A DNA stretch of 64,000 nucleotides from Ectocarpus siliculosus. Its lineage: Eukaryota; Sar; Phaeophyceae; Ectocarpales; Ectocarpaceae. The position numbers and the translations under genes are program-made. The stretch spans positions 652,030-716,029 of the forward strand of contig FN649758.1 in the NCBI GenBank assembly GCA_000310025.1. The letters are read 5' to 3'. A model generated the notes under the pieces. It worked only from the letters and a program-made list of their open reading frames with translations, had not been told where the DNA came from and ran no database searches. Below, in pieces: positions 13,694-55,500 of this stretch (positions within the stretch are counted from its first letter, which is position 1; each line of letters opens with the position of its first letter).

Positions 13694-16600
13694 CGCAACG
13701 CCCCACTTACAACTCTCGAAAAACGGCCCTGCAGCCGTACCGTCTACACAAAGCCAACGCCACGTCGTCGAGTGATCAAAATCTGGATTGATACCATGAC
13801 CACAAATAGACTACAACCCAACTCTTTCGCATCTCCCCGCACGACTCAATGAGCAACTCAGGTACATGTGCGTGCGCGCGAATGGTATTAGCCTACCCTT
13901 CGGTACGACCGTTGCCTCCTAATCAACGACAGCACTTTTGCCCTGCGGAAAAAAGGCAGCCAGAGAAACAAGGAAATCACCATCGTACTGCTGTACATGT
14001 ATGTGTGTACATATATGTAGTCCTCGCCCATCCGTCGACTTAACGGCGTTCTAGGATAGTTGAAGCCCGTTTCCACTGCCTTATTCGCCTTCGACCTTCG
14101 AAACCACGACCTCTGCAACTGGGTTCTTCCAGTCGTAGTCTGCTTGCGAAAGGTCTCCCACGCCATTAATGCCTCGGTGCACGTGGATAAAGCCCTCTGA
14201 ACCACGGCCGCCAAGATTTTCCCTTGGCTTGGGGCTTGCGGGACACGCCCGGCCCCGAATGCAGGTACACTTCTCGTTGTTTTTCTCGGTACCTTTGGGA
14301 AAAAAAGGGAAGAACGCAGGGCCCGTGAATTGATTCTCCGGTATTTTGTTTCATTTCCCTCGTGTGCGCGGTTGTCCGTCGTGCGGTCATTTCGTCCATA
14401 TCGCGAATACCATTGTTGGTGGGAATCGTTGCCACCAAGAATCGTTGGTAGGAATCATTGCCACCAAGAATCGTTGCAAGCCACACAAAGAATAGTTCTC
14501 GTTCTCCGATCCAGATCGGGGTATGTCGTAAAGCAGGTCACGACAGGGGGGTTCAGGTAGAATACGCAAGTGAAAGGTATTCTTGTAGGCAATCGTGATG
14601 TGAATACCGAACATGATTTTCGATTATTCGGACGTCTAACTGGGGGAACACATGGGTAGGTGTCGACTATGGAGTATGGTCCTTGTGAAGAGCGACAGCT
14701 TCATGGCGATGAGATACGCGTTAGAAAAGTAGTCCTCATATTTCGGAATGGCGTGCGCGCGAAGTTCGTGTCAGCTGTGTGAAATTCCCTTGTCCCTTAC
14801 CGGCATCAAAGGCGGGGGGAAAGAGCTTGGACGGGCGCTTGTCGAGGAATTTGGATCCATCGATTCCCATGAAGGCGTCGTTGGTGTTGGCTGCGTCAAC
14901 ATAGTATAGGCAGTTTAATCGATTGATTAGAACTTCGGGTCGTGAGCAGCTTCATTCGACACAGGAGTACACCCATCTCGTAGGAGAAGGCCTGGGGGGT
15001 TTACATGAAACGATGTCGAATCAGTGAGTGCAGCGACATCGCTGAAAGCGATTGAGCGCGTGCGAGCAGATGTAGCAGACGGGACGCATGAGGCGGGATG
15101 AGGCGGTGTTCGGCGATATTTGACGCCGATTGTAATGGTGGGATCACAGGAAAATTGCCGTAGTCTGAAGCGGCGCCGCGCCACTGAGTTTCGCACGTCC
15201 TGTACAAAAATAAGGCCATGTGCCACCGTACTGTCTCTCTTCAGATCACCATCAGCAATTTGCCTGGACATCAACATTCACACGCCCACAGGTTGTCCAC
15301 ACGGATTCAAGTTCAAATTTGCGACTTGGGGATAACGATGGGTATATGCATCGTCTTGTGTTTCGGAAACTCACTGAGCTTGGCCACCACCGAGTAGACA
15401 GGTCGCTTGCATTTGTTCGCGTCAAACGTGATTTCGCCATTCCATGTCTTCCCGGGCAAAAGGGGGCCCTCGGCCGCGGCAAAGCCACAGAAGCCGTCCT
15501 CGCGTGTTGCGATTATCTGTGCGTGCATCGCCCGCCGTTTTGAGAGGCGCGTAGAAACGGTGGAGCGTGTGTGGGTTCCGCGTTTCGTAGAGGGAACAGC
15601 GGTATTGAAGTGTTCGGGTAGCTCCGGTGACAACACCATGCCACGCTCCGTATTGAGTCCCCCGTCCGAGCAAGAACACGGGGACAAATAATCTCGATGG
15701 ACTGGACGTTGAAAGTTCGACAGAATGAGAGGTGGGTACACATGTGAGAGCGAAGACTCCTACTTATCTAGACTGCCACGGCAATTGGCTGTTAGCGTGA
15801 CGCGATGAATCCCTTGTGAAACCAACCAGCGACATACCTCTATAAACCGGTTGACGCCCTCTTCTGCCATCCGCTTGATTGCGCCTCTCGCCTTCCTGCC
15901 CTTAGAGAATAGGGGACTACCCTGGTGAGCAAGAGGGAGAACGGGTGCGACAGATGAAAAGTGTCACGCCGTTGCGGGGGCTGCCGCTCGAAGCATTCAT
16001 GGTTCGTTGGCAGGAGGTAAGGGCACAACATTCCAAGGCAGCCCGTATATTCTCTCCACACAATCACTGGGCTGGTCGGGGAGCAACACGAAGGACAGGT
16101 ACATGGTGTTCAGGACCTGGGCACCTACCTTTTCATGCGCCACGATGATGGGGGGCGAGAAGTCCTGCTTGAAAGTCAAGTTCGTCACGCGGACCTGTAC
16201 GACGTTCGTTCATTGATTGTGTTTGGAGAGGGCGCGGCAGATAAGAACGTTGGCTGGGTACAGACATGAGAGGGAGGCGCTATCGTGACCAAGCTCCGGG
16301 TCGAGGGGACAGCTACCGGCACCGCCATCGACAGTGTTTGTTCAAGGCACTAAGTAGTTGTTGCTTCTAGCTTCAACAACGTGTGGACTGGGAGAACTGC
16401 TGTACATTCTATGTCTCGACCCTCTGAGTAGCTCGACGTACACTGATCGGCCTCCGCTATCTTCCTCACACACAACACGACCATGGCAGCTCGCCTTGTA
16501 CGTCTCCATGCTGCTGCCGCTTGTCGAGCAACCGCTGGCGAGGGAGAGCACTGATGCTAAAGCGAGACCGAACGCGAACTTGACCATCTTCCTCTTGACT

Positions 16601-18719
16601 ACTGTAGGTGTGATATGGTTGGCAGAATGAAGGAACAGAGGGGACAAAGGCCAAGACAGATGAGTGGGGCAGGTGATGGTGATGGGGAAAGACTCGTCCG
16701 TCTCATTGGCATATTCCACGTCGCTCACTGTGAATGAGGGTCTTGTCGAGCCAGAAAGCGCAAATCAACGTTCAGGCCTTGGTGCAGCCGAACAAAATGC
16801 TTCTCAGCGTGTATGAATACACATATCGGCATGTGCCTCACGCGCGGGTGGATGTGCACACGTCAACACCACCTGGATCAGGAGACAATGTCGTGTTCCG
16901 ACAAGTTGAAACAACGCAACCCTCACTCATCACTGCCTTCGGCGAGCGAAAATGGGATATGTTTGTCGTTTGCTGTCAAGCTCGTCCTCACTTGCGAACC
17001 GCTGGCACACCCTCGAAGCGATTCGAACGGATTACTCATTGCGTGTACCGTGTACCACCCGCCTCACCTTCCTTTGTCGTCGCGTGATGTTCCACCTCGA
17101 TCGGTAGCGGTGCGGGATGGCGATGCAGCTTGGGGTTCAGATGTGGTTGTGAGTCTCTGTTGTTTGTGACAGGTGGGGAAGGGTGAGGGCTCGAGGAGAG
17201 AGGCTGGATCTTCCGTCGTGATCAAGATGGTTGAACCGATCGTCAGTGTGTCCCGTCGTCCAAATGCATCGTTGAACTGACAACCCGGACGAATAGCGGA
17301 ACTGTCAGTTTTGCCTCGCGGCGATCGTTGAAGCGAGCCAGCCAAGACGTCGACGACTTTCGATTGTGGGCCATACCCGTCTGAACGGTCCACATTGTGC
17401 AATTACCATTCACAGCTGGAAGACGCAGGAAATCGGTCCAAGCTTCAAGCCCGTCGGCCCTTGCCGTGAAAGTGACTTGATGATGTCAGACTCTCCGGAC
17501 GACAGAGAAGGCGGGGGTGTTTGGTCCCCGGATTATCGCCTCACTTTAGCTAGGCCACGTAAAACGTCTGCCGCACTCACCAAGCTATTTGCTACCTTGG
17601 AGTATCGCCTGATCTCATCAAACATGAAAATAACACCCGAACGTGAAGGGTCCGTCTGTCGGGAGAATCATTCCACGTTCTCTGAGTATCGTCTGGCTTC
17701 TCAAACGTCTGGCGCATCGTACCTTCGGAAAAAACAATGTGCCGATCTTAGCAACTTCTCTAGAGGAGTCGCGCTGCGTTTGCTCCGTATCGACACGTGA
17801 ATGCCCCTCCTTGTCGTAAGGCGTCATGTTTCCGTCCCCGGGGGCAACCCGTAGAGTTGTGGCATGCCGGCGCTCGATGCCGGTAGCATTTATTGCCGGG
17901 CCGAAGGTTAAATGTGTCGACGACTTTAACACCTTGTGGAGCACACTCTGTAGACAGGCGATGAAGCGGTGGCGCCGGCGAGTACCGAGCATCGACTGTG
18001 CCATCGACCGCCTTGGAAACCACAACCGCAAGGGACGGGCCGAGCGACAGTCCGATACAGTCGCGAAGACGCCATGAACCAGCGCTCAGCGACCCCTTTG
18101 TAGGGAGAGCGGCGGCCCCCCTCGTACATGTAGCATAGCGTCGCCGTGGCTGGCAAACTGAGGGATATTTGTGGTCGTGGATTCGAACGAACATTGCCCC
18201 TGCTGAAGTACAAGCATGCCGCTTAACCGGGCACGTATACGTAGCTCTATGCAGTCATCGGTTGGGTGAAGCGACCCCATTGTCGAAACCAGAAATCATA
18301 TCTGTGTACTTACTTCACTTTGACCACCTACCGGATGGCGAAGGTGCTTGGACTTTGTGTCGGGCGGGCGAACCCAAGAGCAGGTTTTTCGATTTTTGGT
18401 ACCCAAGGACGTACCCTCATCACTACTGTACGTACCATTGAGATATTGAACGCTGGCAGGGAAGTGTAAGGTGCACGGGATGCCACGACTCAATGCCCAG
18501 GCCAACTCGGCCCCAAGCGGAGTGTCTGCTGTTTCATTTCCAGCACTCGGACACGAAGTGGTCGGGTCCTCCCCAAGACCACGCTGCAGTACTTGACGCG
18601 CTGGGCCGAACTACTAACGACTCGACATTCATTCGTTGAGGAGGTGAGCGAATGGTGATGTTTTCCGGTCAAAAGAATGTGACAGTCTGTTGTTTTGGCA
18701 GAATCATCTACAGAACACA
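13694..18719. repeat. Direct duplication, copy 1 (about 5.0 kb)
   Basis: Almost the whole segment recurs in the same orientation at 19263-25156. The match starts at CGCAACGCCCCACTTAC and ends at GAATCATCTACA. Outside the spondin exons I count only scattered single-base changes and small indels of 1-5 bp, roughly 1-3% divergence. The unit holds one complete spondin-domain gene on the minus strand plus about 2.1 kb upstream of it (16588-18719). In that upstream part several frames are open on both strands, but none is recognisable. Non-triplet indels between the copies (for example at 16830 versus 23260, and 16911 versus 23343) argue against coding there. Confidence 0.95.
14081..16587 (-). CDS. 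Secreted Spondin_N-domain protein, copy 1
   Basis: Minus-strand exons in transcript order: from ATG at 16587 to about 16465 (donor unresolved), 16194-16129, 15921-15838, 15516-15375, 14890-14801, 14292-14081. Exon 1 gives a signal peptide (MVKFAFGLALASVLS). The rest follows the Spondin_N fold in order: VTNLTFKQDFSPPIIVAHEK; GRKARGAIKRMAEEGVNRF; GPLLPGKTWNGEITF; NTNDAFMGIDG; FPPAFDAG; TEKNNEKC; GSEGFIHVHRGINGVGDL; DYDWKNPVAEV. These match conserved blocks of Spondin_N, namely the 'TNDAF' loop, the DAGTE-NNE segment with a downstream cysteine, and the HVHRGI-GVGDL-DYDW-NPVA end. Phases agree across all resolved junctions. Spondin_N domains occur in extracellular-matrix adhesion proteins of animals and in secreted bacterial proteins, so a cell-wall or surface role is inferred. 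The protein is about 230-240 residues with no other domain. It lies in a direct duplication with a second copy at 20.5-23.0 kb. Family assignment is from memory of the consensus. Confidence 0.8.
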
Positions 18720-19262
18720 TATGTCAGAGCATCATTCCATGGCGGGGTTGAATTCCAGCGGGCCAGCGCAGGGGAAAGCGGGGGTAAATTAGTGCTGCCG
18801 ACTTGACAACCGTTCGTTGTAGTCGATTCTCCTCCCCTTCGTGATACTCATTGCTGTGTGTGACTCCGTCCATCTTACGGATCCGGACCAGCTGCGATCC
18901 TGGACTCAGACGTAAGTGTTTGGGGTGAGGTTGAACAAGCACCCAAATGCATGCGCACAGCCGCGCTGCTGTACTACAGTAGTGACCATAGATTCGGTCC
19001 CTACGTTTATTCTCGAAAGGGCGGATACAATGTCTCGTGCGGAGTAGAGATCAACATCATATCGACCAACTTGGTAGCTTTTGGCGGGAACGCGCATTTC
19101 GGGTTCCGGCCGACGATGCTGATCGAGAGTGCGTCCAAAGAGCTACGGTGACAGGTCCTTGTACGTCGTCTTTCTTCATTTCAAGGAATTCACTTCACTC
19201 TGTGATTAACCCGTGCGGCAGCTTCTGAATGTCGAACCGTCCGCTGACCACAGAAGTTCGTC
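18720..19262. other. Single-copy spacer between the duplicated blocks
   Basis: This 543-bp spacer has no counterpart in the duplicated unit. Plus-strand frame 18951-19151 (containing GPYVYSRKGGYNVSCGVE) and a minus-strand frame over the same bases are both open. I cannot decide whether either is coding. Confidence 0.5.
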
Positions 19263-19365
19263 CGCAACGCCCCACTTACAACTCTCGAAAAACGGCCCTG
19301 CAGCCGCACCGTCTACACAAAGCCAACGCCACGTCATCGCGTGGTGAAAATCTGGATTCATAGAC

Positions 19366-20224
19366 GGCAAATTTTTAATGTACCGGGACAGCGCTTTTAG
19401 GAGTTTGATTACGCGGGCGAAGCCCGCCAATAAACGGTGAAACCCATAATTGATCTGCGAGCCAACGCTTTCAAAATCACCTTTCTCAATGAATCGATGA
19501 AGGAAAGGAGACACCAGAGCAGAGGTGCCGTCACTGGGGCAGCAAAGGAATCACCGTGCAGATATTCTGCCATGCGGGTTGTCAACAAACCGACGCGTCG
19601 GGATGGATGGATGATTGATGTGGTGATTGCTTTGGGTGGGGTGTTCACTCCAATAAAGAACCTACCGATAGATGGAGTCAAGAGAGCGAAAAAAAACAAC
19701 GCGGAGCTGCCAGAGCATCATCATCACGTTACTTGAAGTGTTCTGGCGAAAGGACGGGCGTGCAGATGATATATAAGCATGCATGGATCCCTGGGTGTAG
19801 GTACTACTGCTGTGCTGCAGTAGCTCGACATAAAATGTTCGCGTGTGTGTGCGTGATGCGTGCGTGCGTGTTTGTACCTCTTCTTTTAGCGGGTGCTGCT
19901 GCGTACTCACTCGTCATCGACACTCAGTGTGGCTGGCATTGCGAAACTTCGTGCACACAGAAACCAGAGTGGTCTCTGCTGCTGTTGGCGTCTGGTATGC
20001 GTAAGTTGCAGCGCCCAGGCTCCCGCCTGATGTGTGTCGGTCTCTGAACTGGTTGGTTCGGATGCGGTGCGCGCAGAAGAAAAAGCGGCGTAATTGCCAA
20101 CATTACTCGAAAATAGACAACACGCCAAGTAGGCGCCAAGTTAAATGGAGACAGCTGATTGGCGGACGCCAAGTTAAATCTGTCCCGGCGGCTTTTTTGG
20201 CTTTTTTGATTCCGGGATTCAGGC
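19366..20224. other. 860-bp segment present only in copy 2
   Basis: The segment is bounded by the 7-mer GGATTCA on both sides (about 19354-19360 and 20214-20220). At this point copy 1 has a short junction with a single GGATT. This fits either an insertion making a 7-bp target duplication, or a deletion from copy 1 across the short direct repeat. Near the edges lie CCGGGACAG (19383-19391) and its inverse CTGTCCCGG (20180-20188), plus a repeated CGCCAAGTTAAAT near the right edge. I see no recognisable gene; the frame at 19437-19736 matches no family I know. Confidence 0.6.
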
Positions 20225-20513
20225 ATACCATGACCACAAATACAACCCAACTCATTCGCAACTCCACGCACGGCTCAATGAGCAACTCAGGTACATGTGC
20301 ATGCGCGCGAATGGTATTAGCCTGCCCTTCGGTACGACCGTTGCCTCCTAATCGACGACAGCACTTTTGCCCTGCGGAAAAAAGGCAGCCAGAGAAACAA
20401 GGAAATCACCATCGTACAAGTATTGCTGTAGTCCATATATGTAGCCCTCGCCCATCCGTCGACTTAACGGCGTTCTAGGATAGTTGAAGCCCGTTTCCAC
20501 TGCTTTCTTCGAC

Positions 20514-23017
20514 TTAGGCCTTCGATACGACAACCTCTGCAACTGGGTTATCCCAGTCGTAGTCTGCTTGCGAAAGGTCTCCCACGCCATTAATGCCTCG
20601 GTGCACGTGGATAAAGCCCTCTGAACCACGGCCATGATTTTCCTTTGTCTTGGGGCTTGCGGGACACGCCCGGCCCGGCATGCAGGTACACTTCTCGTTG
20701 TTTTTCTCGGTACCTTTGGGAAAAAAGGGAAGAACGGAGGGCCCGTGAATCGGTTCTCCGTTTCAATATATTATGTTTCATTTCCCTCGTGTGTGCGGTT
20801 GTTCGTCCTGCGGTGGTTTCGTCCATATCGCGAATACCGTTGTTGGTGGGAATCGTTGCCACCAAGAATCGTTGGTAGGAATCATTGCCACCAAGAATCG
20901 TTGCAAGCCACACAAAGAATAGTTCTCGTTTTCCGATCCAGATCGGGGTATGGCGTAAAGCAGGTCACGACAGGGGGGTTCAGGTAGAATACGCAAGTGA
21001 AAGGTATTCTTGTAGGCAATCGTGATGTGAATACCGAACATGATTTTCGATTATTCGGACGTCTAACTGGGGGAACACACGGGTAGGTGTCGACTATGGA
21101 GTATGGTCCTTGTGAAGAGCGACAGCTTCATGGCGATGAGATACGCGTTAGAAAAGTAGTCCTCATATTTCGGAATGGCGTGCGCGCGGAGTTCGTGTCA
21201 GCTGTGTGAAATTCCCTTGTCCCTCACCGGCATCAAAGGCGGGGGGAAAGAGCTTGGACGGGCGCTTGTCGAGGAATTTGGATCCATCGATTCCCATGAA
21301 GGCGTCGTTGGTGTTGGCTGCGTCAACATAGTATAGGCAGTTTAATCGATTGATTAGAACTTCGGGTCGTGAGCAGCTTCATTCGACACAGGAGTACACC
21401 CATCTCGTAGGAGAAGGCCTGGGGGGTTTACATGAAACGATGTCGAATCAGTGAGTGCAGCGACATCGCTGAAAGCGATTGAGCGCGTGCGAGCAGATGT
21501 AGCAGACGGGACGCATGAGGCGGGATGAGGCGGTGTTCGGCGATATTTGACGCCGATTGTAATGGTGGGATCACAGGAAAATTGCCGTAGTCTGAAGCGG
21601 CGCCGCGCCACTGAGTTTCGCACGTCCTGTACAAAAATAAGGCCATGTGCCACCGTACTGTCTCTCTTCAGATCACATCAGCAATTTGCCTGGACATCAA
21701 CATTCACACGCCCACAGGTTGTCCACACGGATTCAAGTTCAAATTTGCGACTTGGGGATAACGATGGGTATATGCATCGTCTTGTGTTTCGGAAACTCAC
21801 TGAGCTTGGCCACCACTGAGAAGACAGGCTCCATGCATTTGTTCGCGTCAAACGTGATTTCGCCATTCCATGTCTTCCCGGGCAAAAGGGGGCCCTCGGC
21901 CGCGGCAAAGCCACAGAAGTCGCGCTCGCCTCTTGCGATTATCTGTGCGTGCATCGCCCGCCGTTTTGAGAGGCGCGTAGAAACGGTGGAGCGTGTATGG
22001 GTTCCGCGTTTCGTAGAGGGAACAGCGGTATTGAAGTGTTCGGGTAGCTCCGGTGACAACACCATGCCACGCTCCGTATTGAGTCCCCCGTCCGAGCAAG
22101 AACACGGGGACAAACAATCTCGATGGACTGGACGTTGAAAGTTCGACAGAATGAGAGGTGGGTACACATGTGAGAGAGAGGACCACCTACTTATCTAGAC
22201 TGCCACGGCAATTGGCTGTTAGCGTGACGCGATGAATCCCTTGTGAAACCAACCAGCGACATACCTCTATAAACCGGTTGACGCCCTCTTCTGCCATCCG
22301 CTTGATTGCGCCTCTCGCCCTCCTGCCCTCGGAGAATAGGGGGTTACTACCCTGGTGAGCAAGAGGGAGAACGGGTGCGACAGATGAAAAGTGTCACGCC
22401 GTTGCGGGGGCTGCCGCTCGAAGCATTCATGGTTCGTTGGCAGGAGGTAAGGGCACAACATTCCAAGGCAGCCCGTATATTCTCTCCACACAATCACTGG
22501 GCTGGTCGGGGAGCAACACGAAGGACAGGTACATGGTGTTCAGGACCTGGGCACCTACCTTTTCATGCGCCACGATGATGGGGGGCGAGAAGTCCTGCTT
22601 GAAAGTCAAGTTCGTCACGCGGACCTGTACGACGTTCGTTCATTGATTGTGTTTGGAGAGGGCGCGGCAGATAAGAACGTTGGCTGGGTACAGACATGAG
22701 AGGGAGGCGCTATCGTGACCAAGCTCCGGGTCGAGGGGACAGCTACCGGCACCGCCATCGACAGTGTTTGTTCAAGGCACTAAGTAGTTGTTGCTTCTAG
22801 CTTCAACAATGTGTGGACTGGGAGAACTGCTGTACATTCTATGTCTCGACCCTCTGAGTAGCTCGACGTACACTGATCGGCCTCCGCTATCTTCCTCACA
22901 CACAACACGACCATGGCAGCTCGCCTTGTACGTCTTCATGCGGCTGCCGTTCGTCGAGCCACCGCTGGCCAGGGAGAGCACTGATGCCAAAGCGAGACCG
23001 AACGCGAACTTGACCAT
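20514..23017 (-). CDS. Secreted Spondin_N-domain protein, copy 2
   Basis: Paralogue of the gene at 14.1-16.6 kb, with the same six-exon structure: ATG at 23017 (exon 1 to about 22895), 22624-22559, 22351-22265, 21942-21801, 21317-21228, 20713-20514. Exons 2 and 5 are identical in sequence to copy 1. Exon 3 has one extra codon (GSNPLFSEGRRARG). Exon 4 reads IIARGERDFCGF where copy 1 reads IIATREDGFCGF, and KCMEPVFSVV where copy 1 reads KCKRPVYSVV. Exon 6 lacks one codon in the linker before GSEGF, reads DYDWDNPVA instead of DYDWKNPVA, and ends earlier (VVVSKA then stop). Every indel inside exons is a whole codon, while introns and flanks carry indels of any length. This shows that both genes have been kept as proteins. 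Role and caveats are as for copy 1: a secreted, probably extracellular-matrix or surface protein. The exon 1 donor is unresolved. Confidence 0.8.
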
Positions 23018-25156
23018 CTTCCTCTTGACTACTGTAGGTGTGATATGGTTGGCAGAATGAAGGAACAGAGGGGACAAAGGCCAAGACAGATGAGTGGGGC
23101 AGGTGATGGTGATGGGGAAAGACTCGTCCGTCTCATTGGCATATTCCACGTCGCTCACTGTGAATGAGGGTCTTGTCGAGCCAGAAAGCGCAAATCAACG
23201 TTCAGGCCTTGGTGCAGCCGAACAAAATGCTTCTCAGCGTGTACGAATACACATATATATCGGCATGTGCCTCACGCGCGGGTGGATGTGCACACGTCAA
23301 CACCACCTGGATCAGGAGACAGTGTCGTGTTCTGACAAGTTGAAAACAACGCAACCCTCACTCATCACTGCCTTCGGCGAGCGAAAATGGGATATGTTTG
23401 TCGTTTGCTGCCAAGCTCGTGCTCACTTGCGAACCGCTGGCACACCCTCGAAGCGATTCGAACGGATTACTCATTGCGTGTACCGTGTACCACCCGCCTC
23501 ACCTTCCTTTGTCGTCGCGTGATGTTCCACCTCGGTCGGTAGCGGTGCGGGATGGCGATGCAGCTTGGGGTTCAGATGTGGTTGTGAGTCTCTGTTGTTT
23601 GTTACAGGTGGGGAAGGGTGAGGGCTCGAGGAGAGAGGCTGGATCTTCCGTCGTGATCAAGATGGTTGAACCGATCGTCAGTGTGTCCCGTCGTCCAAAT
23701 GCATCGTTGAACTGACAACCCGGACGAATAGCGGAACTGTCAGTTTTGCCTCGCGATCGTTGAAGCGAGCCAGCCAGGACGTCGACGACTTTCGATTGTG
23801 GGCCACATCCGACCCGTCTGAACGGTCCACATTGTGCAATTACCGTTCACAGCTGGAAGACGCAGGAAATCGGTCCAAGCTTCAAGCCAGTCGGCCCTTG
23901 CCGTGAAAGTGACTTGATGATGTCAGACTCTCCGGACGACAGAGAAGGCGGGGGTGTTTGGTCCCCGGATTATCGCCTCACTTTAGCTAGGCCACGTAAA
24001 ACGTCTGCCGCACTCACCAAGCTATTTGCTACCTTGGAGTATCGCCTGATCTCATCAAACATGAAAATATCACCCGAACGTGAAGGGTCCGTCTGTCGGG
24101 AGAATCATTCCACGTTCTCTGAGTATCGTCTGGCGTCTCAAACGTCTGGTGCATCGTACCTTCGGAAAAAACAATGTGCCGATCTTAGCAACTTCTCTAG
24201 AGGAGTCGCGCTGCGTTTGCTCCGTATCGACACGTGAATGCCCCTCCTTGTCGTAAGGCGTCATGTTTCCGTCCCCGGGGGCAACCCGTAGAGTTGTGGC
24301 ATGCCGGCGCTCGATGCCGGTAGCATTTATTGCCGGGCCGAAGGTTAAATGTGTCGACGACTTTAACACCTTGTGGAGCACACTCTGTAGACAGGCGATG
24401 AAGCGGTGGCGCCGGCGAGTACCGAGCATCGACTGTGCCATCGACCGCCTTGGAAACCACAACCGCAAGGGACGGGCCGAGCGACAGTCCGATACAGTCG
24501 CGAAGACGCCATGAACCAGCGCTCAGCGACCCCTTTGTAGGGAGAGCGGCGGCCCCCCTCGTACATGTAGCATAGCGTCGCCGTGGCTGGCAAACTGAGG
24601 GATATTTGTGGTCGTGGATTCGAACGAACGTTGCCCCTGCTGAAGTACAAGCATGCCGCTTAACCGGGCACGTGCATGTAGCTCTATGCAGTCATCGGTT
24701 GGGTGAAGCGACCCCATTGTCGAAACCAGAAATCATATCTGTGTACTTACTTCACTTTGACCACCTACCGGATGGCGAAGGTGCTTGGACTTTGTGTCGG
24801 GCGGGCGAACCCAAGAGCAGGTTTTTCGATTTTTGGTACCCAAGGACGTACCCTCATCACTACTGTACGTACCATTGAGATATTGAACGCTGGCAGGGAA
24901 GTGTAAGGTGCACGGGATGCCACGACTCAATGCCCAGGCCAACTCGACCCCAAGCGGAGTGTCTGCTGTTTCATTTCCAGCACTCGGACACGAAGTGGTC
25001 GGGTCCTCCCCAAGACCACGCTGCAGTACTTGACGCGCTGGGCCGAACTACTAACGACTCGACATTCATTCGTTGAGGAGGCGAGCGAATGGTGATGTTT
25101 TCCGGTCAAAAGAATGTGACAGTCTGTTGTTTTGGCAGAATCATCTACATAACACA

Positions 25157-27875: not shown

Positions 27876-28544
27876 GGCGCTTGCATAGGCTACACGGCTG
27901 CAGAAGAGATCATCAGCAGTCGGCCGGTTGCGGTAGGCGAACCGGTGTGGGCATTTCAGGTCCGTGCGAACGGTGGGTTTGGTAGATTCCAGAACACCGA
28001 ATACCTCTACAACATAGGCAACGCTGGTAGAGATGCAGCCACCGCTCGAGGCACTTGCCGAAGAGTCAGAGCAACGTACTCATCACGTCGAGAAGAGCTG
28101 TGCGGCGCTGGAGGGGGTGCCGCAGACGGCACACCAAGTGTGCCTGTCGACCGCGGGACAGTGCTTTTGTCTAGAGAGCTGGGGCAGCATGCATCCCCAC
28201 GACGCCGTCGATGCGCCATCAAAGCAACCAGGTGAAGCTAATCGTGGGACCATGGGAAGAAAGACACGGTGGGGTGAGGCAGTAGATAATACCGGTGCAA
28301 CAAGCGGGGGCATCGGTCAGTATCGTGCAGACCCTGTAGGCTGTCCTGGCGATCGTGGTGGCGAGCGATGACGAGGAGCTGGATGTAGCACGTGAGGCCT
28401 TGTAAGAAGAGGTGGAGGAAATACATCATAGCCGCGCGAGTCACTGTGCGCGCTCCATCCACACACAACAGCAGCAGCAGCAGGAGATGGTGAAGATGGC
28501 ACCATTGCAGCAGCGTGGGAGGGTGGACTCACCGAAAACCGGCC
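27876..28544. other. LTR-element interior, no recognisable gene
   Basis: Sequence between the nested inverted-repeat element and the minisatellite. Short frames are open in several phases (for example 28033-28371), but I recognise no domain. It is probably interior of the first LTR element. Confidence 0.4.
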
Positions 28545-29395
28545 GCAAGGCCGTGTGCCCATAGCCGCGACGGCAGGGGCGCGGGAGGGCACCATCAAAA
28601 TAAACACGGCGGGAGGGCCGTGTGCTCATAGCTGCGACGGAAGGGGCGCGGGAGGGCGACAACCAAATAACACGGCGGGAGGGCCGTGTGCTCATAGCTG
28701 CGACGGGAGGGGCGCGGGAGGGTACCAACAAAATAACACGGCGGGAGGGCCGTGTGCTCGTAGCCGCGACGGGAGGGGCGCGGGAGGGCACCATCAAAAT
28801 AAACACGGCGGGAGGGCCGTGTGCTCATAGCTGCGACGGGAGGGGCGCGGGAGGGCGACAACCAAATAACACGGCGGGAGGGCCGTGTGCTCATAGCTGC
28901 GACGGGAGGGGCGCGGGAGGGTACCAACAAACTATAACACGGCGGGAGGGCCGTGTGCTCGTAGCCGCGACGGCAGGGGCGCGGGAGGGCACCATCAAAA
29001 TAACACGGCGGGAGGGCCGTGTGCTCATAGCTGCGACGGGAGGGGCGCGGGAGGGCGACAACAAAATAACACGGCGGGAGGGCCGTGTGCTCATAGCTGC
29101 GACGGGAGGGGCGCGGGAGGGCACCAACAAAATAACACGGCGGGAGGGCCGTGTGCTCGTAGCCGCGACGGGAGGGGCGCGGGAGGGCAACAACAAAATA
29201 ACACGGCGGGAGGGCCGTGTGCTCATAGCTGCGACGGGAGGGGCGCGGGAGGGCGACAACCAAATAACACGGCGGGGAGGGCCGTGTGCTCATAGCTGCG
29301 ACGGGAGGGGCGCGGGAGGGCACCAACAAAATAACACGGCGGGAGGGCCATGTGCTCGCAGCCGCGACGGGAGGGGCGCGGGAGGGCAACAAAAA
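28545..29395. repeat. 66-bp minisatellite, array A
   Basis: About 13 units of 66 bp, some 67-68 bp. Each contains CACGGCGGGAGGGCCGTG, a perfect 6-bp stem (CACGGC/GCCGTG) around GGGAGG, followed by G-rich GGGAGGGGCGCGGGAGGG. Because 66 is a multiple of three, long frames stay open on both strands (for example 28595-29617 minus). These repeat a 22-residue unit and should not be called proteins. Confidence 0.95.
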
Positions 29396-29832
29396 AAAAA
29401 AATCTAACGCCCCATGGCGCGTCGGACGGGGCGTGAGGGGGGGAGAAAATCGAAGCAGCCCCGTGGCGCGCCGGAAAGGGCGTGAGGGGGAACCCCGCGG
29501 CACGTCGGAAGGGGCGTGGGGGGGAGGGTACTTGCCTCGTGATGCTAAAACGGGAACTCCTTTTCTGGCGAGGCTACAGGCCGGGACGAGCGCTGGGAGG
29601 GGAGCAACACGCATCACAGTGCTGGATTGGCACTTCTTTCTTGACGGTATTTGGTGTTTGATGGTATTCGTAGCGAAGTTGGTGATCCTCGTTAGTTGTC
29701 ATGAGTGCACTTTGGTTGAAGAGCCAGGGAGGGTGTTTCGTGTTTCTCGGAGGCCTTCGCGTCCACATGTTCAGTGTTTTCCTGGTAGTCATTTGGTTCA
29801 AACCCTTCTTGATTGCGGCCACGTGGGGCCGT

Positions 29833-29932
29833 NNNNNNNNNNNNNNNNNNNNNNNNNNNNNNNNNNNNNNNNNNNNNNNNNNNNNNNNNNNNNNNNNNNN
29901 NNNNNNNNNNNNNNNNNNNNNNNNNNNNNNNN
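29833..29932. other. Assembly gap (100 N)
   Basis: Exactly 100 N. The 440 bp before the gap (29395-29832) recur almost base for base at 30689-31126, after the second minisatellite array. This suggests the same locus was assembled twice on either side of the gap. Confidence 1.
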
Positions 29933-30690
29933 GACGGAAGGGGCGCGGGAGGGTGCCAACCAAATAACACGGCGGGAGGGCCGTGTGCTCATAGCTGCGA
30001 CGGGAGGGGCGCGGGAGGGTACCAACAAAATAACCCGGCGGGAGGGCCGTGTGCTCGTAGCCGCGACGGGAGGGGCGCGGGAGGGCACCATCAAAATAAA
30101 CACGGCGGGAGGGCCGTGTGCTCATAGCTGCGACGGGAGGGGCGCGGGAGGGCGACAACCAAATAACACGGCGGGAGGGCCGTGTGCTCATAGCTGCGAC
30201 GGGAGGGGCGCGGGAGGGTACCAACAAAATAACACGGCGGGAGGGCCGTGTGCTCGTAGCCGCGACGGCAGGGGCGCGGGAGGGCACCATCAAAATAACA
30301 CGGCGGGAGGGCCGTGTGCTCATAGCTGCGACGGGAGGGGCGCGGGAGGGCGACAACAAAATAACACGGCGGGAGGGCCGTGTGCTCATAGCTGCGACGG
30401 GAGGGGCGCGGGAGGGCACCAACAAAATAACACGGCGGGAGGGCCGTGTGCTCGTAGCCGCGACGGGAGGGGCGCGGGAGGGCAACAACAAAATAACACG
30501 GCGGGAGGGCCGTGTGCTCATAGCTGCGACGGGAGGGGCGCGGGAGGGCGACAACCAAATAACACGGCGGGAGGGCCGTGTGCTCATAGCTGCGACGGGA
30601 GGGGCGCGGGAGGGCACCAACAAAATAACACGGCGGGAGGGCCATGTGCTCGCAGCCGCGACGGGAGGGGCGCGGGAGGGCAACAAAAAA
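29933..30690. repeat. 66-bp minisatellite, array B
   Basis: About 11-12 further units of the same 66-bp repeat after the gap, followed by the same tail as array A (offset 1,294 bp, with one visible substitution near 29457/30747). The tail has three G/C-rich sub-repeats of the type CCCCGTGGCGCGCCGGAAAG. Confidence 0.95.
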
Positions 30691-31126
30691 AAAAAATCTA
30701 ACGCCCCATGGCGCGTCGGACGGGGCGTGAGGGGGGGAGAAAATAGAAGCAGCCCCGTGGCGCGCCGGAAAGGGCGTGAGGGGGAACCCCGCGGCACGTC
30801 GGAAGGGGCGTGGGGGGGAGGGTACTTGCCTCGTGATGCTAAAACGGGAACTCCTTTTCTGGCGAGGCTACAGGCCGGGACGAGCGCTGGGAGGGGAGCA
30901 ACACGCATCACAGTGCTGGATTGGCACTTCTTTCTTGACGGTATTTGGTGTTTGATGGTATTCGTAGCGAAGTTGGTGATCCTCGTTAGTTGTCATGAGT
31001 GCACTTTGGTTGAAGAGCCAGGGAGGGTGTTTCGTGTTTCTCGGAGGCCTTCGCGTCCACATGTTCAGTGTTTTCCTGGTAGTCATTTGGTTCAAACCCT
31101 TCTTGATTGCGGCCACGTGGGGCCGT

Positions 31127-36183: not shown

Positions 36184-36670
36184 TGTTGTTGGATGTACTC
36201 ACAGCATTGACAGAATATTGCAACCGAGGAATGTTCCTAGAAGATGGAGCGGGGAATTTTTGGGGTTCCGCAGTAGTAGTAAATTGGGGGAATGGTGGTA
36301 CCATCTTTGCCACATATTCTTGTTTTCTGGGTATGCGTGGCTGCAACGGTGTTGGCCACGTGCCCTTGATTAATTCATCTTCTTTTTTCCCGGCTATCAC
36401 GCCCTGGGCTATCACGCCCGTGCCCATACTACCTATCCACCAGCTATCACGCTGCCAGGCTTTCACGCCTCTAGGCTATCACGCCATCACAACAGATCAC
36501 AGCACCAGCGTCAGCACATCAGAGCTATCACGCTCCGGAACATCACAGATGCGGCGGGTTACCACACCCGTGGGCAGTTTACTGTATTTTGGCGTTGCCG
36601 GCAAACTCGCCGCGAGGTTCTTTTATTTTTGCCGTCTACAACTACGCCGGGCGCACCAAGCCACCCAACA
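36184..36670 (+). repeat. 5' LTR of the second LTR element
   Basis: 487 bp. It includes a cluster of the decamer GCTATCACGC (36388-36525) and shares its whole sequence with the 3' LTR. Confidence 0.8.
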
Positions 36671-41017: not shown

Positions 41018-41522
41018 TGTTGGATGTACTCACAGCATTGACAGATTATTGCAACCGAGGAATGTTCCTAGAAGATGGAGTGGGGAATTTTTGGGGTTCC
41101 GCAGTTGTAGTAAATTGGGGGAATGGTGGTACCATCTTTGCCACATATTCTTGTTTTCTGGGTATGTATGCGTGTCTGCAACGGTGTTGGCCACGTGCCC
41201 TTGATTAATTCATGTTCTTTTTTCCCGGCTATCACGCCCTGGGCTATCACGCCCTGGGCTATCACGCCCGTGCCCATACTACCTATCCACCAGCTATCAC
41301 GCTGCCAGGCTTTCACGCCTCTAGGCTATCACGCCATCACAACAGCTATCACAGCACCAGCGTCAACACATCAGAGCTATCACGCTCCGGAACATCATAG
41401 ATGCGGCGGGTTACCACACCCGTGGGCAGTTTACTGTATTTTATCGTTGCCGGCAAACTCGCCGCGCGGTTCTTTTATTTTTGCCGTCTACAACTGCGCC
41501 GGGCGCACCAAGCCACCCAACA
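41018..41522 (+). repeat. 3' LTR of the second LTR element
   Basis: 505 bp matching 36184-36670. The length difference comes mostly from one extra GCTATCACGCCCTGG unit and a few small indels. Confidence 0.8.
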
Positions 41523-52500: not shown

Positions 52501-55500
52501 CCAACTTGTTTCGACATAGGATCGGACGTTCAGCGCCGAAGTGGCCGTAGTTCATGTTGCTTCTGTTTCGTTTGTTGAAGCACTCCTGATGATGATTGCG
52601 GATCACGGACGTACTTTCGGTTCCCTCACAATGTTTGTTTTTTGTGTGTTTCCGATTGTCCTTGTGAACGTTGTATGTATTCTAGATGATCGGGGGTGCG
52701 GGCGGTGTGACCGAAGACAGGAACACGGACCTTGACGGGGCGAGGGTGGGACCTCCTCCTGACCTACCGTCGCTGCTGCTTCACAACCGCATCGTGTACC
52801 TCGGGATGCCCCTCGTGCCGGCGGTGACGGAGCTCATCATCGCGGAGGTGAGGCTTTGCATGCTCGGTTAGATGACGGCTTGTTGGTGGTGGTAGTGGGA
52901 GTTGTGGCGGTGACATTGTTCGTGTTGTTTATTGTTGTTGGCGGTGGTAGTGGCGTCGTTGTTGCTGCTGCTGTTGGCGGTTGCTGTGTGTTGAGAAACG
53001 TGTTGCTTGTTGTTGGTGGTGGTGGTGGTGGTGGTGGTGGCGGTGGTGGCATTGTTGTTGCTGTTGCTGTTGTTTATTTTTCTTACTGTTGATCAACAAT
53101 CTTGTTGGCGTTGTTGTTTCTGGGGGCGGTGGTGGTGGCAGAGGTGGCGTCACCGGTGGCGGTTGTTGAACGCGTAATTTACCGTTGTGGTCGTGTTGCC
53201 GTGTCAATTTTCCTTTTCCTTTACGCGAGTGCTACACAAACTGCCTTCGACATGCTGCGTTCTACTTGGCGATGAAACGTGTCGGAGCGTGTCTATGCCT
53301 TGTTGGTGGAGCGAATTTGTGTGCTATCGCTGCTGTGACTCTTTCGGAGCTATGTGCACCTGTACAGCAGTGTGCTGCTGTTCCACGAAGAAAACGGATA
53401 TTAGCTTGAATCCTGCGTTGCGAACGGTTCTTCCCTTAATGTCTCCACTCAGCACGACACTCAACTTGGTCCTTTTCTTGCTGACGCTGTGCCAAACGTG
53501 TCTCGATGCGATTCGATCACAGCTGCTGTACCTGAACTACGAGTCAGCCTCCAAGCCGGTGTACATGTACATCAACACGCCGGGCACATCCACCCCCGAC
53601 GGTCGCGCGATCGGATTCGAAACCGAGGCGTTCGCCATCAGCGACTGCATGAACTACATCAAGCCTCCGGTGTACACCATCGGAGTGGGGCAGGTCGGTA
53701 CCCCCCGCCCACCCCCCGATGTTTTTCTATTGGCGTTGCATTGTGCAAGTGCCCGTTAGCGTTCGTCGGTTATAAATCCTTTCTGGGGTTGCACGTGAGT
53801 GTGTACCGTCAGGAACGTCGTGTATGTGTTTTCGTGTTGAGCTATAATATCATTGTTTCAGCAACAAGCGTGGGGTCATTTGTCGAAACAGTCCGGCGAG
53901 TTGTCTCAGCAGAGCTCGTGATCAATGCTTCCGCGCACCACGGCTCCATTACACACACCCAGCACCGGAGTCCCGCCCCCGGCAGGCATATGAGTGTAAG
54001 CCTCAACGGCTTTATCAAATATTATGTCGCGTACGTTCCAATCTAGTAAAACGTGGTGGACCGGGTAGGGATCGGGTAAGTTACCCTGTTACCATAGGAA
54101 TCGACCGTGTCAAGTGGCAGATCAGTACGGACAGAACCAGTTACGGGCAGAGAGATCGGAACGGTTTGTAATGTGAAGACATTAACCACAACAGCATGAA
54201 CAACCGGATTGTTGTCCATTGCTTGGTCAGGCGTTCGGGCTGGGGGCCATGCTGCTTGCCTCGGGGGAGAAAGGGCACCGTTCGGCTCTGCCCAACGCGA
54301 GCATCATGCTCCACCAGCCGCGCAGCATGGCGAGGGGGCAGGCGTCGGACATCGCCATCAAGGCCAAGGAGGTGCAGTGGCTCTCGATCATTTTATGATT
54401 GTCCCCGCTACAGTAGTATCTTCAGTCGATTTCCCTGCCGTAGCACCAATATCACCATGTCAATTTGCTGAACTTTTTTTTGACATGCATATACTCTCTG
54501 ACTGCCGTTTGCGTGCCGGCTATGTATTGCGTAGCGAAGTTCTATTTTAGCGTCGGAGGGCTTTTTTTTCAACGTCTGACGGAGCCACCAAGGTCAGCAA
54601 GACCAGTGGCGAACATTGATAACATGAACGATAAAAACAGCAGGACGACTCAACAATACACGATCCTGTTACCTGTGTGGGTCGTGGTGAAAGTAGATTC
54701 TACAGCTATTCGAATTTGGTACAATACTCTAGCCTTTAGGTAAATGAATGGTGAGGACGATTGCACGTTGACTGCTTTCCGCCGCGTGAGCTGTTGCAGC
54801 GACGGTAGGGGACAGACTTAGCCGTCACGGTCAGAGAAGGCCGCTAGAGCAACGTCAAAGCTGCTGTCCCGAGAGATTTTCCTCACCCTCATGACCAGTT
54901 GGACTTGTGTTGCGCCGCTGTAATTAACCCACACCAGCCGTAGTATTCTTCCTATCTACCACTCAACATGTTTGAGTGCTGACGACATTGTTGCTGCTGT
55001 TTCTCGCGCCAACCACTGCTGTAGACCATTAAGAGGATGAGCGTCGCGGTGTAATATGGAGAACGCCCAGAACAACACGCCGCATTCCTTGTTCGTTGAC
55101 CAAAACAAACCCATTTGGTGCGTGTATTTCTTGGTGGTGACGACCCAGGTAATGGCCAACAGGAAGACGGCGACGCAGATGCTTTCGGAGGCATGCGGAA
55201 AACCTTACGACGAGGTCCTCGAGGACTCGTCCAGAACGTTCTACATGTCTCCCGACGACGCGGTAGAATACGGCCTCATCGACAAGGTGAATTGATTACG
55301 TATTTTGGCCGTTTCCCTGTTGCGCTCTTCTGACGGTATTTATGGGTTATTTTGGCGCTATGGAGGCGTGCTGTGTTGTAGTAGAACAGGTTGTTTTCTT
55401 GGCCGAGGCGTTTTCTCAACCCCGTGTTATTACATTCATTTGTGTTGGTTTTAGATTTTTGATTGCACCGCACTCATAGGCACCATTACACGACCGCATA

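What the first reader, a model, noticed from the sequence alone, without database searches (positions are those of the whole stretch)
14081..23017. Spondin-domain duplicates diverge in exons, not introns
In the direct duplication, introns and flanks differ by roughly 1-3%, and exons 2 and 5 of the spondin genes are identical. Exon 4 differs at about 11 of 142 positions, and all but one of those changes alter amino acids (TRED-G versus RGERD; KRPVY versus MEPVF). Exon 6 and the start of exon 3 are also rich in replacement changes. All exon indels are whole codons. Reversed divergence (exon above intron) suggests positive selection, or gene conversion limited to some segments, on a secreted adhesion-type protein. 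Counts are by eye.
Basis: partly seen in the sequence, partly recalled or inferred. Interest (0 to 1): 0.75.

Follow-up and report, generated by a model that had tools for sequence, protein, structure and literature searches.

The report
Spondin gene twins, patchy coding divergence
Two neighbouring copies of a spondin-type gene are nearly identical in most of their introns but differ in short coding stretches, most simply because the copies overwrite each other except where their proteins are kept different, a pattern already known from primate colour-vision genes.

Summary
The duplication is real: 13697-18719 matches 19266-25156, with 862 bp extra in the second copy. Each copy holds a six-exon minus-strand spondin-domain gene (235 and 232 aa). 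Coding divergence is 35/705 (5.0%) against 22/1797 (1.2%) in introns. Three corrections apply. (1) Exon 6 is not special: 14/209 against 28/399 in the non-coding DNA around it. The anomaly is exons 1 and 4, weakly 3; 19 of the 21 differences in exons 1-5 lie in four patches of 15-27 bp. (2) dN/dS is not above 1: 0.80-1.02 for the gene (bootstrap 0.39-2.67), 1.5-1.9 in exon 4, not significant. (3) Synonymous sites in exons 1-5 are raised too: 6 seen, about 1 expected (P 0.0005-0.001), so selection on amino acids by single mutations is not the whole story. Gibbon L/M opsins show the same pattern, explained in print by gene conversion in introns with exons protected by selection. I favour that. 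Import of segments from unseen paralogues and clustered adaptive changes remain open, because the genome is not held. New member of a known kind.

The parts
13697..18719 (.). Duplicated unit, copy A
   Evidence: 97.3% identical to 20225-25156 over 13791-18719; left end 13697-13793 matches 19266-19362 at 93.8%
19266..25156 (.). Duplicated unit, copy B, with 862 bp (19363-20224) not present in copy A
14081..16587 (-). Spondin gene A: exons 16474-16587, 16129-16194, 15838-15921, 15375-15516, 14801-14890, 14081-14292; 235 aa
   Evidence: gene model; NCBIfam NF038123 E 2.6e-23, residues 39-229
20514..23017 (-). Spondin gene B: exons 22904-23017, 22559-22624, 22265-22351, 21801-21942, 21228-21317, 20514-20713; 232 aa
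   Evidence: gene model; 91% identical to A
16504..16530 (-). Divergent patch in exon 1 (alignment columns 20-28), 5 of 27 bp, just after the presumed signal peptide
15892..15915 (-). Divergent patch in exon 3 (columns 63-71), 3 of 24 bp plus one codon present only in B
15493..15507 (-). Divergent patch in exon 4 (columns 93-97), 5 of 15 bp, TREDG vs RGERD
15391..15408 (-). Divergent patch in exon 4 (columns 126-131), 6 of 18 bp, KRPVYS vs MEPVFS
13791..14412 (.). 3' block of generally high divergence: 3' flank, exon 6 and the end of intron 5
   Evidence: non-coding 28/399, exon 6 14/209
14413..18712 (.). Low-divergence remainder; its non-coding DNA differs at 31 of 3800 sites

Best explanation
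A spondin-domain gene was duplicated head to tail long enough ago for the copies to reach about 6-7% divergence. Gene conversion between the neighbours then homogenised introns 1-4, most of intron 5, the 5' flank, exons 2 and 5 and the middle of exon 4 to about 0.8%. Short coding patches in exons 1, 3 and 4 escaped because conversions that erase useful amino-acid differences are selected against, and nearby synonymous differences were kept with them. The 3' end, exon 6 included, lies outside the recently homogenised stretch. Both proteins keep the spondin scaffold and differ mainly in loops, so they probably bind different partners or act in different settings. Shown: the divergence map, the raised synonymous sites, the open frames. 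Inferred: conversion as homogeniser, selection as protector, loops as binding sites, the age of the duplication.
For: Exons 1-5 21/496 vs non-coding 31/3800; synonymous sites raised as well (P 0.0005-0.001); dN about equal to dS. Non-coding divergence is itself strongly uneven along the unit: 28/399 in the 3' block vs 31/3800 elsewhere, p 3e-14, dispersion 3.5, reached by 0 of 5000 shuffles; longest identical non-coding run 539 bp, p 0.014. The left edge of the duplication shares the high level (93.8% identity over 97 bp), similar to dN (0.063-0.066) and dS (0.065-0.078) in exons 1, 3 and 4, as expected if 6-7% is the age of the duplication. Gibbon L/M opsins show exons above introns, dS 6.1-6.4%, dN not significantly above dS, with the same explanation (PMC3213168, passages); a review shows the same for human opsin exon 5 (PMC3924837, passages).
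Against: Outside the 3' block the non-coding DNA fits one uniform rate (dispersion 1.15, p 0.23), which also suits a single recent duplication or one long conversion. Two of the patches reach 33% (12.5% and 19% in the others), far above 7%, so retention of old divergence alone does not make them. Four of the six synonymous changes in exons 1-5 lie in or beside replaced codons and one is an averaged path. No third sequence was available to see conversion directly.
Confidence: 0.45

Rival explanations
1. Segment import: after a recent (about 0.8%) duplication, short exon pieces in one copy were replaced from diverged paralogues elsewhere in the genome, by short-tract conversion or from spliced cDNA, like the segment switching described for viperid three-finger toxin genes.
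For: Four compact patches, two with 33% difference, synonymous and codon-indel changes carried along; clustering p 0.005; uniform 0.8% elsewhere. Segment switching in exons and not introns is described in PMC2474615 (passages).
Against: No donor in the window within 4 mismatches for the patches of 18 bp or more (the 15-bp patch has many chance matches at 3-4 mismatches). The 3' block and the left edge of the duplication would need a separate import that stops at the duplication edge.
Confidence: 0.25
2. Clustered adaptive change: the duplication is about 0.8% old and loops of one or both proteins changed quickly under positive selection, with some multi-nucleotide mutations that brought synonymous changes along.
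For: Replacements in exons 1-5 are 15 against 2.9 expected from non-coding DNA, P 4e-7. Exon 4 has 9 replacement to 2 synonymous changes. Changes sit mostly in loops. 11 of 20 replacements alter charge vs about 0.34 expected, p 0.05.
Against: dN/dS 0.80-1.02 overall and not significantly above 1 in any exon tested; synonymous excess; the 7% 3' block is unexplained.
Confidence: 0.2
3. Artefact or relaxed constraint: misassembled alleles, consensus error, or loss of constraint in one copy.
For: Changes fall at columns that vary in the family anyway (entropy 2.35 vs 1.80 bits, p 0.02). Copy A lost a proline kept in 51 of 52 relatives. Genome and reads are not held.
Against: Exon indels keep the frame while 9 of 10 non-coding indels are not multiples of 3; splice sites are GT-AG in both copies; allelic variation or relaxation alone would not make exons more diverged than introns.
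Confidence: 0.1

Closest known systems
Primate L/M (red/green) opsin gene pair
   Same: Tandem paralogues with exons more diverged than introns, synonymous divergence about 6%, dN not above dS (PMC3213168, passages; PMC3924837, passages)
   Different: Here the patches are shorter and up to 33% different, no polymorphism or sister species data exist, and the functional difference is unknown
[quoted passage not shown]
   Same: Changes confined to short exon segments with conserved introns and conserved scaffold (PMC2474615, passages)
   Different: Switched toxin segments are 12.5-50% identical there; patches here are 67-88% identical, so related rather than replaced
Exon shuffling of LRR exons in brown algal ROCO genes
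   Same: Diversifying coding units in an algal receptor-like family (PMC11378527, passages)
   Different: There whole 72-bp exons are shuffled; here exon order and number are the same in both copies
FS-domain-only spondin-like proteins of Saccharina and Neopyropia
   Same: A spondin domain and no other domain found; reported raised in kelp sori, and in red alga thalli given a gametogenesis inducer (PMC11333212, passages)

Membership tests
Spondin (FS / Spond_N) domain family | Match to a curated spondin profile above its cut-off | tested here: met
   A: NCBIfam NF038123 83.2 bits, cut-off 40 (B not scanned there). Pfam Spond_N falls short: 16.7 bits, cut-off 24, for A, no match for B
Spondin (FS / Spond_N) domain family | C2-like FS fold | tested here: inconclusive
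   Model of bacterial homologue L005 (pLDDT 84.3) matches 3d34 E 6.6e-13 and 3q13 E 3.6e-11; the window protein itself was not folded
Spondin (FS / Spond_N) domain family | Ca2+ ligands of the PSPDW and DAGTD motifs | tested here: inconclusive
   Both copies have NTND and DAGTE at the matching motifs; two Asp and a Glu where F-spondin has three Asp. Correspondence judged by motif, binding not tested
Paralogues under gene conversion with protected exons (opsin-like) | Exon divergence, synonymous included, above intron divergence | tested here: met
Paralogues under gene conversion with protected exons (opsin-like) | Introns group by species, exons by paralogue | not testable with these tools
   no sister genome or other paralogue held
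Positively selected paralogues | dN/dS significantly above 1 | tested here: not met
   0.80-1.02 overall, 1.5-1.9 in exon 4 with Fisher p 0.73-1.0
Segment switching (ASSET) | Exon segments replaced by dissimilar sequence, introns conserved | tested here: inconclusive
   Patches are 67-88% identical; no donor in the window for patches of 18 bp or more

The most novel reading that the evidence does not exclude
The pair belongs to a larger family of secreted spondin-like recognition or adhesion proteins in this eukaryote in which loop-coding patches of 15-27 bp are exchanged between paralogues while introns and scaffold exons stay uniform: a patch-swapping system that makes new binding surfaces, for instance in gamete or cell recognition.
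Probability: 0.12. Interest if true: 0.7.

Novelty: new member of a known kind. Interest (0 to 1): 0.36.

Why it matters
Coding stretches that diverge faster than introns point to the residues that matter between gene copies. Here they mark a few loops of a spondin-domain protein, a family about which one paper says there is little information in algae and reports four genes upregulated in kelp sori (PMC11333212, passages). If confirmed, the pair is a small testable case of selection resisting gene conversion in a non-animal, and it shows how a high exon divergence can be misread as dN/dS above 1.

Tried and rejected
Exon 6 as a selected exon: rejected, same divergence as its non-coding surroundings. 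dN/dS above 1 for the gene: point estimates 0.75-0.96 on the first codon alignment and 0.80-1.02 on the corrected one. Donor patches in the window: none within 4 mismatches for the three patches of 18 bp or more; the 15-bp patch gives many matches at 3-4 mismatches, which I take as chance. A third spondin copy in the window: tblastn at loose E gave only hits within the two copies down to E 0.17. Own genome: not held. Viral contigs: no relative with the single protein, one with the six-sequence alignment. Plasmids: 3 bacterial records. Solved structures by sequence: none up to E 1. tRNA genes and Rfam families in the window: none found. A ts/tv shift in exons 1-5: 12:9 vs 24:7, p 0.14. Excess of charge-altering changes: 11 of 20, p 0.05, too weak to claim.

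Rows dropped: of 80 bacterial loci fetched, 52 passed my open-frame and motif rule and 28 were left out; 40 of the 52 went into alignment A2 for the model. Positions 13697-13790 were left out of the divergence counts. Two mismatches at 14210-14211 became one after a better gap placement. The entropy test kept columns with more than 20 sequences.

Full report
WHAT IS THERE. The window looks eukaryotic: the two genes studied have five GT-AG introns each, and an open frame at 53178-53756 matches Clp protease (E 3.3e-11). That it comes from a brown alga is my recollection of sequence style and was not tested. A unit of about 5.0 kb at 13697-18719 is repeated head to tail at 19266-25156, with 862 bp extra in copy B. 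Each copy carries one minus-strand gene of six exons with an open frame. The models rest on homology and splice signals, not transcripts; the domain match begins at exon 2, so exon 1 with its presumed signal peptide is the least certain. Copy A matches NCBIfam NF038123, spondin domain, at E 2.6e-23 (83.2 bits, cut-off 40); Pfam Spond_N gives 16.7 bits (cut-off 24) for A and nothing for B. A model of one of them (pLDDT 84.3) matches the F-spondin domains of mindin and F-spondin.

DIVERGENCE MAP. Exons 36/705, introns 22/1797, p 6e-8; 35/705 after a better gap in exon 6. By segment: 3' flank 17/280, exon 6 15/209 (14 corrected), intron 5 16/507, exon 5 0/90, intron 4 0/483, exon 4 11/142, intron 3 5/321, exon 3 3/84, intron 2 0/207, exon 2 0/66, intron 1 1/279, exon 1 7/114, 5' flank 5/500 then 15/1622. 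The 3' block 13791-14412 stands apart: its non-coding part is 28/399 and exon 6 is 14/209, no difference (p 1.0), while the other non-coding DNA is 31/3800. So exon 6 belongs to a generally diverged stretch, while exons 1 and 4, and less surely exon 3, exceed their own introns. Sliding the exon map round the unit reaches the observed exon rate in 0.4% of positions, all within 60 bp of the true one. Differences inside exons 1-5 are clustered (p 0.005): 19 of 21 fall in four patches of 15-27 bp.

SELECTION. Corrected codon counts for the gene: 23 replacement and 9 synonymous differences; dN 0.047-0.049, dS 0.048-0.058, ratio 0.80-1.02, bootstrap limits 0.39-2.67 over three ts/tv weightings. Exon 4: 9 and 2, ratio 1.5-1.9, not significant. 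Against the non-coding rate both classes are raised in exons 1-5: 15 replacements vs 2.9 expected (P 4e-7) and 6 synonymous vs 0.95-1.14 expected (P 0.0005-0.001). The reversed divergence is real, but selection on amino acids by single changes does not explain the synonymous part. One of the six synonymous changes is an averaged path in a codon with three differences; with five, P is 0.003-0.006. Four of the six lie in or beside replaced codons, and the two outside patches are close to the number expected by chance.

MECHANISM. In gibbon L/M opsins the exons are more diverged than introns, synonymous divergence is 6.1-6.4% and dN is not significantly above dS; the authors infer gene conversion in introns with purifying selection against conversion in exons (PMC3213168, passages). 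A review describes a peak of divergence at exon 5 of the human pair with low flanking introns (PMC3924837, passages). The present pair shows the same features. Its 3' block and the left edge of the duplication keep a 6-7% level, similar to dN and dS in exons 1, 3 and 4, as expected if 6-7% is the age of the duplication and the rest was overwritten later. Two results sit less well: the remaining non-coding DNA fits one uniform rate (dispersion 1.15, p 0.23), and the patches reach 12.5-33%, beyond 7%. Import of exon segments, as described for viperid three-finger toxins (PMC2474615, passages), or adaptive clusters with multi-nucleotide mutations therefore stay open. Two sequences cannot separate these.

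PROTEIN. Replacements and indels in the domain fall at columns that vary more in the family (entropy 2.35 vs 1.80 bits, p 0.02, 52 of 80 loci). Mapped on the modelled homologue they lie mostly in loops: before the first helix, after the second helix, between strands 94-101 and 107-111, and in the long loop before the last strand; exceptions are the end of the second helix and one residue in strand 107-111, and a few positions do not map. The long loop is modelled with low confidence. In the IRG/MPG motif the second residue is proline in 51 of 52 relatives and in copy B, arginine in copy A, so A seems to have the derived state there. The motifs that hold the Ca2+ ligands of human F-spondin (PMC3117680, passages) are identical in the two copies, with Glu in place of the third Asp. 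Kelp spondin-only genes are reported upregulated in sori, and red-alga ones after a gametogenesis inducer (PMC11333212, passages and abstract), a hint and no more for function.

LITERATURE. Searches on spondin with brown algae, spondin with Ectocarpus, tandem duplication and gene conversion with brown algae, and a broader search (one search listed 10 of 25 papers) showed no paper that by title and abstract start describes this pattern for spondin genes. Only open-licence PMC papers were searched and most listed papers were not opened.

VERDICT. A real, statistically firm pattern, narrower than described, best read as a tandem pair under gene conversion with protected coding patches: a new member of a known kind.

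Noticed in passing
19363-20224: 862 bp present in copy B and absent at the matching point of copy A (13793); probably an insertion, no match elsewhere in the window beyond 22 bp.
   Followed up: partly
28513-30694: Array of repeats with spacing near 66 bp on both sides of a 100-N gap (29833-29932); a probable collapsed or unresolved repeat in the assembly.
   Followed up: no
36187-36670 and 41018-41522: Direct repeat of about 500 bp, 93.7% identical, near long open frames at 36-39 kb without Pfam match; could be the ends of a retroelement, not tested.
   Followed up: no
L001:2914-4290, L002:2146-3579, L084:2902-4361: Marine-type bacterial plasmids and one IMG/VR contig carry two spondin-like genes side by side in the same order; the second gene of L084 was judged by eye only.
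   Followed up: no
53178-53756: Open frame with a Clp protease match, E 3.3e-11, probably one exon of a larger gene.
   Followed up: no
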